NCBI GenBank assembly: GCA_963969345.1
Contig: OZ017768.1
Span: 10,518,193 to 10,582,192 of the forward strand
DNA: 64,000 nt
Source: Turbatrix aceti
Lineage: Eukaryota; Nematoda; Chromadorea; Rhabditida; Panagrolaimidae
Direction: 5' to 3'
Position 1 is the stretch's first letter. Every line of letters begins with the position of its first letter. The translations under genes and the position numbers were made by a program. Under the pieces are notes generated by a model. That model was not told where the DNA came from. It worked only from the letters and a program-made list of their open reading frames with translations, and made no database searches. This document shows positions 54,751 through 60,875 of the stretch, in pieces.

Positions 54751-55394
54751 AGAAAAAAAGAAAGAAAAAATGGCGAAAAGAGCAATCACACATTTTTTTC
54801 TACTCCGGCGATCAACTACTAGTACATACATATTTTATTTATTTCTGCTAGCCTGATATAAACTCGTTTTAGTACTGGCCGAGGGTATTTAACACAGCTT
54901 ACGAAGCGTAACAAAAATATAAATTGAGTTGAAGCGGAGCATTTAGATAATACCTTTGATGTTTTCAATCGTTGTCAAAAATTTCAACTATGCCGAGAGG
55001 GAATTTTTTTAAGCCAGAAGACTGAATATTACAAAACAAGTGTTGGAATTCAGTGTTGTTTGCAGCTGTTTTTCTTTAATTCCAAAAAAACCCGTTCGAC
55101 GAAAAACTCCATGGTTGCTTTTTTGTGCTATATAAAAAAATGTTTGCATTATTGGAATATCAAGCTGCCAACAGCGTAAATTAAAAATACAGGTGAACTT
55201 CTCATTTAAATTTCGTATCTTGCTGGAGTAACCAAAATTGCACTATGTTTACCGGGAGTCTTTTTTGATTTAAAAAAAGTAAAACAAACAGCTGCAATAA
55301 ATCCGTAAGATAATTCTATGAAAGCAATATTCATATTTGCGGTAACCACTGACTAAACGCAGCTTTCAGTTTTCTTTTTTTTTCGGCTGCAAAA

Positions 55395-58154
55395 ATGAAA
55401 TATCTGACTTTCATTTTAGTGCTCTGTATCCAAAGCGTTTTATTCAGATTAACATTATCGGTTATCACGTGTCCACCTGAATTCAATTTTAATGCTACCC
55501 TGAACGGCATTTCAAAATGTTATATTAATATTCACATGCCGGAAATGCAACTTGATCGCTGCAACTACCCTTTTGCATGTCATTTTCTTCACAATGAATC
55601 TATTCCGGTGATTATCCAATCCGATCTCGAAAACGATCTTCTTTGTAGGTTTCGCTATGCTTTTAATACATACATAGTAGGGGAAGGATATGTAATTATA
55701 GTTTTTTTGCAGTTCGATATTACTATAAGTATTACGATTATTATAATCCCGCTTACGTAGGATTATACGTTCCATGCAATAAATCGGAAAATGACACGAA
55801 TACTAGTGATTTCGAATGGGTCGATGGATCACCTCTTACAGTAAACCACCTTGATTATAACGGCATAGGCGCATTTGCAAATTTGGGACAAGACAATAGC
55901 AAACCTGTATGGAGTCGTGATGACGGAAAGCTGCCATCAACATCGACAAATATTCTGTGCCAAATTGTGTTGGACTCTTACCAAAATACTAATTTTTTTT
56001 TTCGTAATGATGTATATATTACGAACTGGGAAAGTGATGAAACATTAGAAGAAGAACCCCAAATCACATATTCAGATTATGAAACATATAGTGAATACAA
56101 TAGAGAAGATTTTTATCTTTATTCGCCGTTTCTACACGATTTACTTAGATTTTTGTGGGACGCAGTACACTTTCAACTTCTCTGTAATACTGTTTTGTTA
56201 TTGATCGTCGGATTTCTTTTGATATACGGTTGTTTCAAAAATGATATGATGAAGTCGTCTTATTTTGCACTCGTTATTATTGGTTGCCTATACAACTTTA
56301 TTAGTAATTTTCCGTTTTTTTTAAATACAAATGTCCAATATTTGCATATTATAAATATGCTCAGCTTTCACACAGGCATTTTGAATGCAAATTGGTTCAT
56401 TCTTATTTCCTTCAACAGATTTTCGGGTATGTATTTTTTACTTTTGTTTTTCTAAAAATGCATTCATAAAAATAAATTACGCTTTTTTTGGCAGAATCGC
56501 CTCTGATTTTGACTCCGACTCTGTGATGATGCAGATGCAGAGGAAATTGGAGGTGCCTCAGAATCAGAGAGAATCAGAGGCGCTTCCGAATAGCCTTAAA
56601 GTCTAAATGTAGTTTATTTTCATACTTTTTACATGAAAATTTTTTTGTAGTGGTAACTGATCAGTGTTGTCGGTTCTGAAAATTTTTCGGGTACCCGAAC
56701 CGGAACTGGAACCGAAATCCTGATTTTTCGGGTACCCGGAACCGGAACCGAAAATAAATTTTTCGGGTACCCGGAACCGGAACCGGAACCGAAAATAAAT
56801 TTTTCGGGTACTCGGAACCGGAACCGGACCCGAAAGTAGAAAATTCGGGTACCCGAACCGGAACCGAAGAACCGAACCGGAACCGAAACTTTTCAAACCG
56901 CGTGCGAAACAAAATTTGAAGGATTTTCGTTACAAAAGTGTTCAAAATGAAAAAAATTGCTTTGAATATGAACTTATAATCGATTTCTAAGCGCTTTTTT
57001 TCACTCTGACATGAGAGCTCGTTTTTTCCGTCATTTGAACTCATTTTTAAAATCCGGGTACCCGGAACCGGAACCGAAAATAATTTTTTCGGGTACCCGG
57101 AACCGGTACCGGAACCGAAAATGATTTTTTCGGGTACCCGAAACCGGAACCGGAACCGAAAATGATTTTTTCGAGTACCCGGAACCGGAACCGGAACCGA
57201 AAATAAATTTTTCGGATTCCCGAACCGGAACCGAACCGGTTCCGGTTCGGGTACCCGACAACACTGTAACTGATGTTACATAGTAGTTCAAATATTATAA
57301 CATTAAAAAAACAAATTTACTGTGAAAAAACAGTTTTAAAAACGTTTGGCTGATAAGTATATTTTAACGCAGAGTTGTCAAAATTACACTTTTATTTTGA
57401 GGCCTCCGAGCGAACAGCCTCTGGCTCTATGCAGAGGGGGCAGAGAGAGGCGGCGTCATACTGTTTGAAACGGGCTTTATTTGCAGCGGTTTTTCTGTGG
57501 CGCCATATGAACACGATCTGGTGCAAGCCGCTTACAGTATTCTATATCATTTTTATTCTTCTCTTCCCTCTTTTTGTTCAATTACCAATGGTTTCACACT
57601 GGCACTGTTTATTTGACATTAGTGCAAAATGCAATGTCGAATATGAATTTATTTTCGAATGGCGAAAATATGTCACAAATATATCAAATGCTATTTCTGC
57701 TGTGATGTCACTATTTTTTTGTACTTTTGCAAGTCTTAGCAGTCGATTTGGTAAGAAAAATGAGCAAGTGGTTTCAAATGAACGACGAAAAGCTGAAAAT
57801 AAACTTCTCATACAGACTACTTTTTTTTCATTTTTTCATTTCCTTTTTATTTTGTCTTTATTCGTGAATAATTATTACTTTGGCAAAATGACATTTTTGG
57901 AGCAGAAAGTTTGTGTTCTTCTTCAAAACTTTACTTCACATTTTGCCATTACGTCGCTTATTGTTCCGTTCGTCGTTTGCAAAACTTGGAGAACAAAGAT
58001 ATTTGGATCCATGTGGCTGACAGCGTTTTTTGCAAAACCGTCTTCCAACCCGGTGAAACGTATTGTAACGGCCATCCCTTTTAGTGTCTACATGATTTTA
58101 TACTACGTTATTCCTTCCTTCTCTTTTGCTCTGTATAAACATTTTTATTTTTAA
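55395..58154 (+). CDS. C-type-lectin-domain seven-transmembrane receptor
   Basis: Predicted cell-surface receptor, 543 aa. Exons: 55395-55644, 55713-56426, 57487-58154; both introns are phase 1 on both sides. After a signal peptide (residues 1-22), residues about 24-170 form a C-type-lectin-like domain: CPPEFNF, SKCY, a Cys/Ala-rich helix (NYPFACHFLHNESIPVII), YVGLYVPC, DFEWVDGSPLTVNHL and STNILCQI. An acidic Tyr-rich stalk follows (to about 235). Then come seven helices near 239-258, 266-287, 296-317, 337-354, 384-405, 430-449 and 468-487. NRF at the end of TM3, the HWHC loop and PFVVCKTWRTKIFG after TM7 resemble nematode serpentine chemoreceptors. An eighth hydrophobic stretch (516-537) may be genuine tail or a missed intron. 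Intron 2 (1060 bp) contains hAT-like element D. Confidence 0.82.
56662..57266. mobile_element. hAT-like non-autonomous element D (GGGTACCCGGAACC arms)
   Basis: A 605-bp element with termini CAGTGTTGTCGG / CCGACAACACTG. A perfect 8-bp duplication TAACTGAT flanks it (56654-56661 and 57267-57274). The arms are repeats of GGGTACCCGGAACCGGAACC separated by AAAATAAATTTTTC; the core is AT-rich. It sits inside intron 2 of the lectin-7TM gene. Confidence 0.9.
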
Positions 58155-58233: not shown

Positions 58234-58916
58234 TTATGCAACCAAAAGAACTTTCAAGGAACACAACAAAATCCATGAAAACACTAAACTGGAGGCTGCA
58301 TTTTTGTGTTCTAATATGTGAATGTTTTCTGTTGAATAAATCTTTGTATCTTTGTCGGAATCCAATAAAAGTTGACAGAGTATGTTTGCAGGTTCTTGAT
58401 ATAGGATTGCGGGAGCATTGTGCCAATGATTTCCAAATTCTTCTGTATATAGTAACTGTGCTAGCGCGCCATTCATGCGGTCTTCTTTATTAACTTTTAA
58501 GTGATTGAGAGTGAGAGGTGATCCGTCTACCCATTCAAAGTTATCGGTTGTGCCATCTTTCAATTTCCCGCACGGAATGTATAATCCGATGAATGCGGGA
58601 GGGAAGTCGTTGTAGCGTTCTACTGTAACTTTTGTATCAAACTATAAATTTTAGGATATAACATACTAAGAACTCTGTTTTCAAACTCGGTTTGAATAAC
58701 GACGGGAATTGATTCGTTGTGTAGAAACTGACACGCCTGGGGATAATTACAGCGATCAAGATCTTTGGCTGGCGCATGTAGATTAGCGTAACATTTAGAA
58801 ACGTTGTTTATCGTAACATTGAAGTAAAATACAGGTGGACACTTTGAAACAGTCAATACATTCTGCAGTACAACAAAGCAAACTGTTAACATTTGAAGCA
58901 ACGCCGATATACCCAT
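58234..58916 (-). CDS. Lectin-only paralog of the 7TM ectodomain
   Basis: Secreted or GPI-anchored C-type-lectin-like protein, 212 aa. Exons on the minus strand: 58916-58667 (250 nt, exactly the length of exon 1 of the neighbouring receptor) and 58622-58234, with a phase 1 intron at the equivalent position. The signal peptide is followed by CPPVFYF, SKCY, NYPQACQFLHNESIPVVI, FIGLYIPC, NFEWVDGSPLTLNHL and ANILCQL, residue for residue parallel to the receptor. It then ends in a hydrophobic tail (SSLVFSWILLCSLKVLLVA) instead of a stalk and seven helices. It converges on the receptor gene with an 80-bp gap. No Ca2+-binding EPN/QPD-type motif is evident in either domain, so sugar binding is uncertain. 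Confidence 0.85.
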
Positions 58917-59485
58917 TTTTTGGCCACTAAAACCAAATGCTGACTTTAAATAACAAAATTATCTAAAGATATTAGACGTTGTCTAAATGTAAAAAAGCAC
59001 CTGTTTTATTTGTATTTTGTTTGACATTTTCAACAAAACAAGATTGCCTGTTACGCAGACACTACAGCCGCTGTGTGCGCAACATGTCTCCGACTCCGAA
59101 GTTCGCGTTGACAGCCATCGACAGAGTGTTTACCCGATATTTCCCTGATAAGTGATCTACTCAGTAAAAAAGCATTCAAATTAGAGCTTGAGCATGACAA
59201 ATGTGGTACGAAAAATTCCTACAAAACAGACTTCAATATAAAAAAAACACGAAAAAAGTGCGTACGCGCTTTGCGTCAGGAATTCTTACTCGTGAAAGTC
59301 ACTAAAAAAACTGCAAAAAATAAATTATGCAATTGAAAAGCGGGGGATGTGAATCTTCTCAAGTTCCACACACACAACCTTTTATCGACATTGAAGTCAA
59401 ATTGCTTCCAAAGTCAAAGTGCGAGAGGCACATAAGCGTTGTTGATTTAGAGCTTTTCTTTGATGCACTTTTATCACCATTCACA

Positions 59486-60094
59486 ATGACTTCTCTTGTC
59501 TTTGTTCATCTTCTCTTTACCGGTCTTGTAGCAGTTGTTTCTGGAATTCTTGATCGTGATTGGCATTCCGTACCAATCAAGGATTCTGTAGTAAAGCAGC
59601 AGCTTCTTCCATTGGCTATTGAAGCTCTCAACCAAGGTTTTTATGATTCAGGAAACGAAGCAGTTTTCCAAACTGCTGCAACAAGATCGTTTTTTGATGA
59701 CGGCGACAACAACAGTGCTTCAAATTACCGCCTAGATTTCAGTTTGCCTGATGAAATATTTCTTCGAGTTAATTTTCATCATTCATTTAAAGCCACTGTT
59801 GTCAACAGTTTGGAATCCCTGGATATCTTTGTTAAAGAAAACTCCGATAGCCAAGTAGTCCAGGATCTTATTCCCATCGCAAGAAAAGCCCTGAGTGAGC
59901 ACGGCCTTCCTGTAATGATATTCATCGGAGCGTTAAAAAAACGATTTGATGTAGACCCCCCTAAACCAAACTATCGACTACATTTTAATACAGAATTTCG
60001 TAAAAAATGGCGCGTATCTATATACCATTCGGGAAACATCACCGATGTTCTGGATGTGACACCAGGTTTACGTATTAGCAAGAATATAACATAA
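59486..60094 (+). CDS. Small secreted protein with two cystatin-like repeats
   Basis: Intron-less, 202 aa. The start at 59486 opens on a signal peptide (MTSLVFVHLLFTGLVAVVSG); an in-frame ATG at 59327 would bury it. Repeat 1 begins DRDWHSVPIKDSVVKQQLLP and contains SNYRLDFSL; repeat 2 begins SDSQVVQDLIPIARKAL and contains PNYRLHFN. The pattern helix (acidic-V-x-x-L-x-x-x-A-x-x-x-L), then Asn-Tyr-Arg-Leu and beta strands, resembles the cystatin fold but lacks its QxVxG loop, and there are no Cys residues. The function is unknown. It is related to the gene 430 bp downstream. Confidence 0.68.
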   Translation: MTSLVFVHLLFTGLVAVVSGILDRDWHSVPIKDSVVKQQLLPLAIEALNQGFYDSGNEAVFQTAATRSFFDDGDNNSASNYRLDFSLPDEIFLRVNFHHSFKATVVNSLESLDIFVKENSDSQVVQDLIPIARKALSEHGLPVMIFIGALKKRFDVDPPKPNYRLHFNTEFRKKWRVSIYHSGNITDVLDVTPGLRISKNIT

Positions 60095-60527
60095 TACATG
60101 TATGTAAATAAATAGTCACAAAGCTTGATATTTAGTAACTTTTTCAAATATCGTACTTCAAATATACACATATTCACACAACACATTTGCCGAGTCGATT
60201 TCGGTCATTTTTTTCTATTTTTTGGGCCATTTTTTACTCGATCGACAACTCTGATGCAAACCTTTTAGTTCATTGAAGTTAATGTAAAAAATCAAAACGC
60301 TGTATAAATAATCAGTAAAAAAACTAAAAGTTTAAGAAAATTTTGCAATTGCAACGCAATAAAGAGCGAGGACGTGACTCTCGTCATGTTTTCGCACACA
60401 ATATTTATTTTTATCCTTTTTTAAAGCAGTTATATCAAAATCAAGGTGTGGCTGTTACAAAGTGGTTGTTGAGAATAGCTTGACATAAGAAGAGCTTCTC
60501 TGTGGTGAATTTTTATTATTACTCACA

Positions 60528-60875
60528 ATGAGTTTTTATTTCTTCGTTTTTCTTCTTTTCACCGGTTTTGCTGTCTCCGCTTTTCACATTGGTGATCTGG
60601 ATTGGCATTCTGTACCCATCACGGATTCTGAAGTTCAGGGGCTTCTTACTTACGCCCAAGATGCTCTTACTGATCAGCTGTATGTCGATGGAAGCAAAGC
60701 CGTTCTCTTTGCTGCTTCAACACGTACGCTTTTTGATTACGGCAACAATGAGAATGTTCCAAACTACCGTCTGGATTTCGCATTGCAATATGAAAAATAC
60801 ATGCGCGTTTCTTTTTACAAATCGTATAAAAACACTTTGATCATCAGTATCGACGAGATACTTCTTTTGAGGTAG
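60528..60875 (+). CDS. Small secreted protein with one cystatin-like repeat
   Basis: Intron-less, 115 aa. The signal peptide MSFYFFVFLLFTGFAVSA is followed by GDLDWHSVPITDSEVQGLL and a central PNYRLDFALQYEKYMRVSF, parallel to repeat 1 of the upstream gene. The second repeat is missing; the frame ends soon after IISIDEILLLR, so it may be a truncated duplicate or a single-domain form. The (ATTT)n tract begins about 70 bp after the stop. Confidence 0.65.
   Translation: MSFYFFVFLLFTGFAVSAFHIGDLDWHSVPITDSEVQGLLTYAQDALTDQLYVDGSKAVLFAASTRTLFDYGNNENVPNYRLDFALQYEKYMRVSFYKSYKNTLIISIDEILLLR

What the first reader, a model, noticed from the sequence alone, without database searches (positions are those of the whole stretch)
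55395..58154. A C-type-lectin-like domain fused to a nematode 7TM chemoreceptor core
Seen: exon 1 and the start of exon 2 carry the hallmark CTLD elements (CP start, GLYVPC, FEWVDGSPL, ILCQ). The same exon then runs without a break through a stalk into TM1-TM3, and a phase-matched splice (56426 to 57487) adds TM4-TM7. Known: nematode serpentine receptors normally have very short N-termini, and CTLD proteins are normally secreted or single-pass. I know of no described nematode family with this fusion. Inference: a receptor that captures a protein or glycan ligand with a lectin ectodomain and signals through a chemoreceptor body.
Basis: partly seen in the sequence, partly recalled or inferred. 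Interest (0 to 1): 0.92.

Follow-up and report, generated by a model that had tools for sequence, protein, structure and literature searches.

The report
Lectin-like domain fused to nematode chemoreceptor
This roundworm genome carries about twenty gene copies that join a secreted lectin-like domain to the seven-pass body of a smell or taste receptor, a combination we found no earlier description of, and one that suggests a worm neuron may sense large molecules as well as small ones.

Summary
The window gene (exons 55395-55644, 55713-56426, 57487-58154; 543 aa) encodes a signal peptide, a divergent C-type-lectin-like domain (CTLD), a stalk and an Srx/Srg-type seven-pass body. It is one of 20 loci in this genome in which the CTLD C-half runs into TM1-3, 19 of 20 in one open frame; 11 models are open throughout. 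Both halves show purifying selection and their trees share 10 of 13 splits. The 7TM passes a Pfam Srx or Srg cut-off in 3 of 6 paralogues and has two published SRX hallmarks. The lectin call rests on profiles and stays under Pfam's cut-off; sugar and calcium motifs are lacking. Added here: all 15 non-redundant fusion genes have a CA(G/C)CTG E-box within 250 nt of the ATG, against 16.7% of background pieces. That is the published HLH-4/HLH-2 site tied to chemoreceptor expression in the C. elegans ADL neuron. Best reading: a sensory-neuron receptor with a captured CTLD ectodomain. No RNA, fold or ligand evidence was available, and other nematode genomes could not be searched.

The parts
55190..55195 (-). 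E-box CACCTG (reads CAGGTG on +), 205 nt upstream of the ATG
55289..55294 (+). E-box CAGCTG, 106 nt upstream of the ATG
   Evidence: CAGCTG is the top-ranked 6-mer of fusion-gene upstreams (11 of 15)
55395..55644 (+). exon 1: signal peptide (by hydropathy) and N-terminal half of the CTLD-like domain (CPP...KCY...RC.YP..C.FLHNESIPVIIQS..EN)
   Evidence: donor TTT|GTAGGT at the site used in the paralogue models
55645..55712 (+). intron 1 (68 nt, phase 1)
55713..55963 (+). exon 2, first part: C-terminal half of the CTLD-like domain (GLYVPC, FEWVDGSPL, P.W, NILCQ)
55964..56170 (+). exon 2, middle: acidic stalk between the CTLD-like domain and TM1
56171..56426 (+). exon 2, end: TM1-TM3 with the invariant NRF at the inner end of TM3
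56427..57486 (+). intron 2 (1,060 nt, phase 1) with 41-nt tandem repeats; 42-65 nt in 14 paralogue models
57487..58154 (+). exon 3: TM4-TM7 and short C-terminus, stop codon included
58667..58916 (-). convergent CTLD-only paralogue, exon 1 (signal peptide, CTLD N-half)
58234..58622 (-). CTLD-only paralogue, exon 2 (CTLD C-half and a hydrophobic tail that looks GPI-signal-like by eye), 79 nt from the end of the fusion gene
58998..59003 (+). E-box CACCTG upstream of the minus-strand CTLD-only gene

Best explanation
A family of about twenty nematode gene copies encodes one-chain receptors: a signal peptide puts a disulphide-rich, probably N-glycosylated CTLD-like domain outside the cell, an acidic stalk of about 70 residues joins it to an Srx/Srg-type seven-pass body, and the body signals through G proteins. 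SHOWN by sequence: one open frame across the domain boundary in 19 of 20 loci, usable GT/AG junctions at the same sites, purifying selection on both halves, largely joint inheritance, Srx/Srg membership of the body, and CA(G/C)CTG E-boxes before 15 of 15 non-redundant fusion genes. INFERRED: expression in a chemosensory neuron (in C. elegans this site is tied to the nociceptive ADL neuron); that the CTLD-like domain binds a protein, peptide or surface ligand and presents it to, or gates, the 7TM; that transcripts are spliced as modelled; G-protein signalling. Origin, inferred from trees: a CTLD-only gene that already had the E-box promoter gained an Srx-like body by an exonic fusion (no intron lies between the CTLD and TM1), the pair was amplified, and one CTLD-only clade, which includes the neighbour at 58234-58916, later lost the body again.
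For: family, one frame, splice sites; dN/dS: CTLD 0.08-0.26, stalk 0.09-0.32, 7TM 0.19-0.46 in five pairs; CTLD and 7TM trees of 16 fusion loci share 10 of 13 splits; 1,000 random relabellings gave mean 0.19, maximum 3; Srx 28.7 and 26.6 bits against cut-off 23.8, Srg 24.4 against 22, in 3 of 6 fusion proteins; NR in TM3 in 10 of 10; ECL2 cysteine pair in 9 of 10, both lost together in the tenth; CTLD profile evidence; four 7TM-only neighbours with short N-termini; CTLD tree; E-boxes and the published HLH-4/HLH-2 site.
Against: No transcript data. The lectin assignment is not shown over Pfam's curated cut-off, hhalign gives only 79% probability, and no fold could be predicted. A simple hydropathy count finds seven TMs in only 6 of 11 open models (4-6 in the rest). 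The window protein itself misses the Srg cut-off (20.0 against 22), and 3 of 6 paralogues scanned reach neither cut-off, one of them with only 10.1 bits for Srx. In C. elegans srx promoters are not E-box enriched (3 of 137). E-box counts come from related genes and include broken copies, the motif was first noticed by eye, the background was not promoter-matched, and two other 6-mers (AAACAG, AAAGCA) are enriched as well. The fusion group is not one clade on the CTLD tree (3 changes). Several copies are broken.
Confidence: 0.62

Rival explanations
1. The 7TM body serves only as a membrane anchor: the working part is the CTLD-like domain, a surface adhesion or immune protein, and the family simply swaps anchors (GPI-like tail, single-pass TM, 7TM).
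For: The same CTLD occurs with a hydrophobic tail, with repeats and one TM (C1:6270987-6271971), and with 7TM; in one pair the CTLDs are far closer than the 7TMs (98% against 54%).
Against: An anchor would not need the invariant NRF, the conserved S...R.AEN.LL.QT stretch before TM6 or the ECL2 cysteine pair; dN/dS on the 7TM is 0.19-0.46.
Confidence: 0.14
2. An ordinary small-molecule Srx chemoreceptor that senses through its TM bundle; the CTLD-like domain is accessory (trafficking, stability, ciliary matrix contact) and binds no cue.
For: The 7TM is Srx/Srg-like and Srx relatives work without ectodomains; the CTLD lacks sugar and calcium motifs.
Against: dN/dS is lower in the CTLD than in the 7TM in four of five pairs, and a CTLD-only clade is kept beside the fusions.
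Confidence: 0.16
3. A gene-model error: two neighbouring genes, an assembly chimera, or pseudogenes.
For: No RNA evidence; several copies are broken (one TAG at C2:11352812, frame breaks at C4:8836640, C4:8844194 and C1:7919222, a stop at C4:10888223, a shortened 7TM at C4:8306562); long repetitive intron 2 in the window copy.
Against: CTLD and TM1-3 share an open frame in 19 of 20 loci on four contigs; 11 open models; purifying selection on both sides of the joint.
Confidence: 0.04
4. The ectodomain is not a CTLD but an unrelated six-cysteine nematode domain with a chance WVDGSP-like motif.
For: Pfam Lectin_C stays below cut-off (19.0 against 22.6 for the consensus); other weak hits such as CCCH zinc fingers also occur.
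Against: Lectin_C is the family most members hit (8 of 25, the next 2 of 25); 14 of 20 PDB profile hits are C-type-lectin chains by name, none below E 0.001; hhalign score 36.8 against a best of 21.1 in 200 column shuffles.
Confidence: 0.12

Closest known systems
SRX / SRXA and SRG families of the nematode Srg chemoreceptor superfamily (PF10328, PF02118)
   Same: Pfam scores over cut-off in 3 of 6 paralogues scanned; NR in TM3; cysteine pair inside ECL2. By eye the 7TM-only neighbours' first frames also end just after the NRF/NKF site.
   Different: About 236 residues before TM1, with a signal peptide and a CTLD-like domain; 534-580 aa against the 300-400 aa reported for C. elegans chemoreceptors (PMC3534327, passage); E-boxes in the promoter, for which srx genes of C. 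elegans are not enriched (PMC2576165, passage).
Nematode C-type lectin (clec) proteins
   Same: CTLD-like profile, secreted N-terminus, tandem families.
   Different: Divergent six-cysteine form lacking WND and, but for one row, EPN/QPD; joined to a 7TM. The C. [quoted passage not shown]
Adhesion GPCRs with modular ectodomains (recalled; PMC12716839, passages on ectodomains)
   Same: Long modular ectodomain on a 7TM body; in other animals some carry lectin-like modules (recalled, not checked).
   Different: No GAIN/GPS domain found by Pfam; the 7TM belongs to nematode chemoreceptors, not to the adhesion class.
Class C receptors such as T1R taste receptors (recalled)
   Same: Works like: a folded extracellular domain binds the cue and drives a 7TM body.
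   Different: Unrelated ectodomain and 7TM family.

Membership tests
SRX / Srg superfamily chemoreceptor | Pfam Srx (PF10328) or Srg (PF02118) at or over the curated cut-off | tested here: met
   Family level: Srx 28.7 and 26.6 bits (cut-off 23.8) and Srg 24.4 (cut-off 22) in 3 of 6 full-length fusion paralogues; the other three are below. Window protein alone: Srg 20.0 against 22, so below.
[quoted passage not shown]
   N139 R140 F141 in 10 of 10 rows of A2
SRX / Srg superfamily chemoreceptor | potential disulphide within extracellular domain 3 (PMC2576165, passage) | tested here: met
   Cys pair in 9 of 10 rows; both replaced by Tyr in the tenth
SRX / Srg superfamily chemoreceptor | short N-terminus and 300-400 aa size usual for the class (PMC3534327) | tested here: not met
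   TM1 starts near residue 237; 534-580 aa. A usual, not a defining, feature; it is the novelty.
SRX / Srg superfamily chemoreceptor | seven transmembrane helices, N-terminus outside | tested here: inconclusive
   Hydropathy finds seven in 6 of 11 open models, 4-6 in the others; a hydrophobic N-terminus and 3-8 N-glycosylation sequons before TM1 fit N-out
C-type lectin-like domain (Lectin_C, PF00059) | Pfam score over cut-off 22.6 | tested here: not met
   8 of 25 members match at E<=10, best E 0.0019, bits of that member not printed; consensus 19.0 bits at E 0.0025
C-type lectin-like domain (Lectin_C, PF00059) | profile similarity across the CTLD core in register | tested here: met
   hhalign score 36.8, P 1.7e-5, probability 79%, best of 200 column shuffles 21.1; first version 34.6 against 26.0 in 60 shuffles; PDB profile search: 14 of 20 hits are C-type-lectin chains, best E 0.018
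C-type lectin-like domain (Lectin_C, PF00059) | conserved cysteines for the outer and N-terminal disulphides | tested here: inconclusive
   Six cysteines invariant in 25 of 25; which pair with which is untested
C-type lectin-like domain (Lectin_C, PF00059) | calcium/sugar motifs EPN or QPD and WND (recalled) | tested here: not met
   EPN/QPD 1 of 25, WND 0 of 25. Needed for classical sugar binding, not for the fold
C-type lectin-like domain (Lectin_C, PF00059) | CTLD fold | not testable with these tools
Adhesion GPCR | GAIN/GPS domain next to TM1 | tested here: not met
   No GAIN or GPS hit in 7 full-length fusion proteins (at E<=10, at E<=1)

The most novel reading that the evidence does not exclude
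A new class of animal sensory receptor: an ADL-like nociceptive neuron uses up to about twenty CTLD-7TM receptors, together with co-expressed GPI-anchored or secreted CTLD partners from neighbouring genes with the same kind of E-box, to detect proteins or surfaces of microbes, predators or other worms by contact, with the CTLD as the recognition module on a signalling chemoreceptor body.
Probability: 0.3. Interest if true: 0.92.

Novelty: new variant of a known kind. Interest (0 to 1): 0.78.

Why it matters
C. elegans has about 1,300 to 1,500 putative serpentine chemoreceptors (PMC2576165, PMC3534327, passages), mostly 300-400 aa long. A family with a folded lectin-like ectodomain would let such a receptor read macromolecules, would join two large nematode-expanded families (lectins and chemoreceptors) on one chain, and gives testable handles: a defined ectodomain to express, a defined promoter site, and natural controls (CTLD-only and 7TM-only relatives in the same clusters). 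It also shows a blind spot: the standard survey resolved apparent gene fusions by splitting them at introns (PMC2576165, passage), which could hide fusions of other kinds, though this one lies inside an exon.

Tried and rejected
Two separate genes or a chance ORF: rejected, 19 of 20 loci keep one frame. CTLD as a classical sugar-binding lectin: not supported, motifs lacking. Adhesion GPCR: no GAIN/GPS. Operon of fusion plus CTLD-only gene: three same-strand gaps of 186, 187 and 191 nt (two follow a fusion gene, one lies between two CTLD-only genes) are suggestive, but each downstream gene has its own E-box inside the gap and no intercistronic signal was tested, so left open. Relatives elsewhere: protein search with the full model (4,213 candidates, none E<=10), with the exon-2 alignment (2,253 candidates, none E<=1) and viral contigs (128 pattern matches, none confirmed); since nothing showed that these collections hold nematodes, this says nothing about other nematodes. 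PDB search with the 7TM profile: no hit at E<=10. Structure prediction was not run: the CTLD spans an intron, spliced proteins and loci from the whole-genome search are not on that tool's list of allowed sources, and window sequence alone gives no useful alignment. Organism: unnamed; nematode by 145 exact SL1 copies, 0 in the control (SL1 letters recalled); Oscheius tipulae is only my guess from genome size and was not tested.
Full report
What the sequence shows. The window is a 64-kb piece of an unnamed 60-Mb genome (28 contigs) that is a nematode's: the SL1 leader (letters recalled) occurs 145 times exactly, 0 times in the control. At 55395-58154 (+) three exons with GT/AG ends encode 543 residues: a hydrophobic N-terminus that fits a signal peptide, a CTLD-like domain (about residues 26-167), an acidic stalk, and a seven-pass body with TM1 near residue 237. 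Exon 2 holds, without a stop, the second half of the CTLD-like domain, the stalk and TM1-3. My splicing script searched only for phase-1 junctions, so the shared phase is an assumption that worked, not an independent finding.

It is a family. Searching the same genome with the exon-2 frame gave 52 matches at E<=0.001 (a lower bound). I fetched 20 stretches, built profiles of exon 1, the CTLD part of exon 2, TM1-3 and exon 3 from the first 30 loci, and scanned stop-to-stop frames of the 20 stretches and the window; 13 of the 52 matches lie outside these stretches (one CTLD match on C27, twelve weak matches to the TM part). Of 25 TM1-3 hits, 20 loci have the CTLD C-half upstream and 19 of these have both in one open frame; the exception, C2:11353498, has one TAG. 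Of the 19, C4:8835693 has no exon 1 of its own, C1:7919937 has a frame break inside the CTLD, and C4:10889011 has a stop before the end of TM3. Four further hits are 7TM-only genes and one is a second piece of a broken copy. The script modelled 18 distinct fusion loci; 11, the window's included, are open from ATG to stop, 534-580 aa. The rest are truncated, broken or masked. Intron 2 is 42-65 nt in 14 other models and 1,060 nt in the window copy, where it holds 41-nt tandem repeats. Of 39 distinct CTLD C-half hits, 18 have no TM1-3 downstream; one of these is on the opposite strand of the window, 79 nt beyond the fusion gene's stop. Several CTLD-only models end in a hydrophobic stretch that looks GPI-signal-like by eye.

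Selection and history. In five paralogue pairs dN/dS (NG86) is 0.08-0.26 for the CTLD, 0.09-0.32 for the stalk and 0.19-0.46 for the 7TM (three pairs include a partial or broken copy, compared over aligned codons only). Trees of the two halves over 16 fusion loci share 10 of 13 splits, against a mean of 0.19 and a maximum of 3 in 1,000 relabellings, so the halves have mostly travelled together. Two pairs (C4:10880599/10888223 and C5:9288150/9284516) have much lower dS in the CTLD than in the 7TM (0.12 against 1.18; 0.20 against 0.96), which suggests gene conversion of the CTLD. On a CTLD tree of 29 rows (6 of 35 models were dropped because the domain-end pattern failed), the fusion label needs three changes; with a midpoint root, CTLD-only genes lie outermost and a CTLD-only clade of six (support 99/99), which includes the window's minus-strand gene, lies in a group with eight fusions (96/93). 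The simplest reading is gain of a 7TM body by a CTLD gene and one later loss; the root rests on one long branch and is unsure. Four 7TM-only neighbours have short N-termini and no CTLD motif in the 900 nt before their frame; at one of them, in L031, a lone exon-1-like fragment lies further upstream.

What the body is. Pfam: of 6 full-length fusion paralogues, Srx is over its cut-off in 2 and Srg in 1; the other three are below both, one with only 10.1 bits for Srx, and the window protein reaches Srg 20.0 against 22. In a scan of 10 7TM parts at E<=1, 8 hit Srx (best 6.5e-7) and 6 hit Srg (best 6.4e-7). A published survey (PMC2576165, passages read) gives SRX an NR motif in TM3 and a cysteine pair in extracellular domain 3; both are here (10 of 10; 9 of 10 with joint loss in the tenth). 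That paper's main text holds no occurrence of lectin, N-terminal or amino-terminal. I place the body in the Srg superfamily, nearest to Srx.

What the ectodomain is. Six cysteines are invariant in 25 rows. Lectin_C is the Pfam family most members hit (8 of 25, best E 0.0019) but no hit is shown over the cut-off, and the consensus scores 19.0 against 22.6. A profile search of PDB sequences gave 20 hits at E<=10; 14 are C-type-lectin chains by name, best E 0.018, none below 0.001, and the other six are unrelated, zinc fingers among them. Five alignments were printed; in the three mincle ones and one other lectin the WVDGSP stretch lines up with the lectin's own, and one is a zinc finger. Profile-profile comparison with ten CTLDs gave score 34.6 against a best of 26.0 in 60 column shuffles and, with five rows of divergent relatives added (not five new domains), 36.8 (P 1.7e-5, probability 79%) against 21.1 in 200 shuffles. 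EPN/QPD occurs in 1 of 25 and WND in 0 of 25 (motifs recalled). I call it CTLD-like and expect no classical calcium-dependent sugar binding.

Where it may act. In 250 nt upstream of the ATG, after dropping 3 near-copies of 18 fusion models, CAGCTG is the most enriched of 1,282 6-mers (11 of 15, expected 0.9); among 17 CTLD-only upstreams CACCTG is first (12 of 17, expected 2.1). CA(G/C)CTG occurs in 15 of 15 fusion and 12 of 17 CTLD-only upstreams, against 16.7% of 250-nt pieces of all held stretches, the tested regions included; the upstreams otherwise share a median of zero 10-mers. Of ten E-box variants, CACCTG and CAGCTG were reached by 0 of 300 Markov shuffles in the fusion set; in the CTLD-only set only CACCTG was, and CAAATG and CAGATG are mildly raised in the joint set. 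I first saw the motif by eye, so the ranking of all 6-mers is the fairer test; relatedness still inflates it, broken copies are included, and AAACAG and AAAGCA are enriched too. PMC5908064 (passages) states that the C. elegans HLH-4/HLH-2 heterodimer binds CA(G/C)CTG and that CACCTG predicts expression of GPCR genes in the ADL neuron; PMC4972359 (passages) shows an E-box needed for srh-234 in ADL; PMC2576165 reports E-box enrichment in sre, srh, sri and srz but not srx (3 of 137). The fusion genes' promoter therefore seems to have come with the CTLD side. Expression in an ADL-like neuron is an inference across species.

Mechanism. I think it most likely that the CTLD-like domain binds a protein or surface ligand and that the Srx-like body signals; a pure-anchor role and a purely small-molecule role are the main rivals. 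The invariant residues at the inner ends of TM3 and TM6 (NRF; S...R.AEN.LL.QT) argue for signalling. None of this has been shown by experiment.

Prior description. Eight targeted searches of the held open library showed no nematode CTLD-7TM protein (I saw listings and abstract starts, only 15 of 29, 12 of 22 and 12 of 22 papers, and passages of five papers: PMC3534327, PMC12716839, PMC2576165, PMC4972359, PMC5908064). Most subscription papers and any protein database with nematode entries were out of reach, so an unnoticed database annotation is possible. Hence 'new variant of a known kind'.

Noticed in passing
window 55190-55195, 55289-55294, 58998-59003; upstream of 15 fusion and 12 CTLD-only genes: CA(G/C)CTG E-boxes, the published site of HLH-4/HLH-2, before every non-redundant fusion gene and 12 of 17 CTLD-only genes.
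   Followed up: yes
window 56427-57486: Intron 2 filled with 41-nt tandem repeats built around GGGTACCCGGAACCGG with palindromic cores.
   Followed up: partly
window 59324-60094 and 60489-60875 (+): Two related ORFs (DWHSVPI ... motifs) that look by eye like tandem secreted cystatin-like proteins.
   Followed up: no
L040 4947-5382 region; L042 6182-6621 and 5279-5866 regions: CTLD-only genes follow another family member on the same strand at gaps of 186, 187 and 191 nt, short enough for an operon.
   Followed up: partly
L042/L043 (C4:10880599 and 10888223), L045 pair (C5:9284516 and 9288150): CTLD parts far more alike than 7TM parts (dS 0.12 against 1.18; 0.20 against 0.96), suggesting gene conversion of the lectin module.
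   Followed up: partly
L046 (C5:9198000-9207900): Tandem array of divergent CTLD-only genes, one with two CTLD-like domains in a row and some with an extra cysteine pair.
   Followed up: partly
L049 (C1:6270987-6271971): CTLD-like domain followed by near-identical repeats (NEGQNDGMLP...) and a single TM: a third way of anchoring the same domain.
   Followed up: no
G000 C4:728148-753655: Cluster of SL1 copies about 1.5 kb apart, perhaps an SL1/5S array.
   Followed up: no
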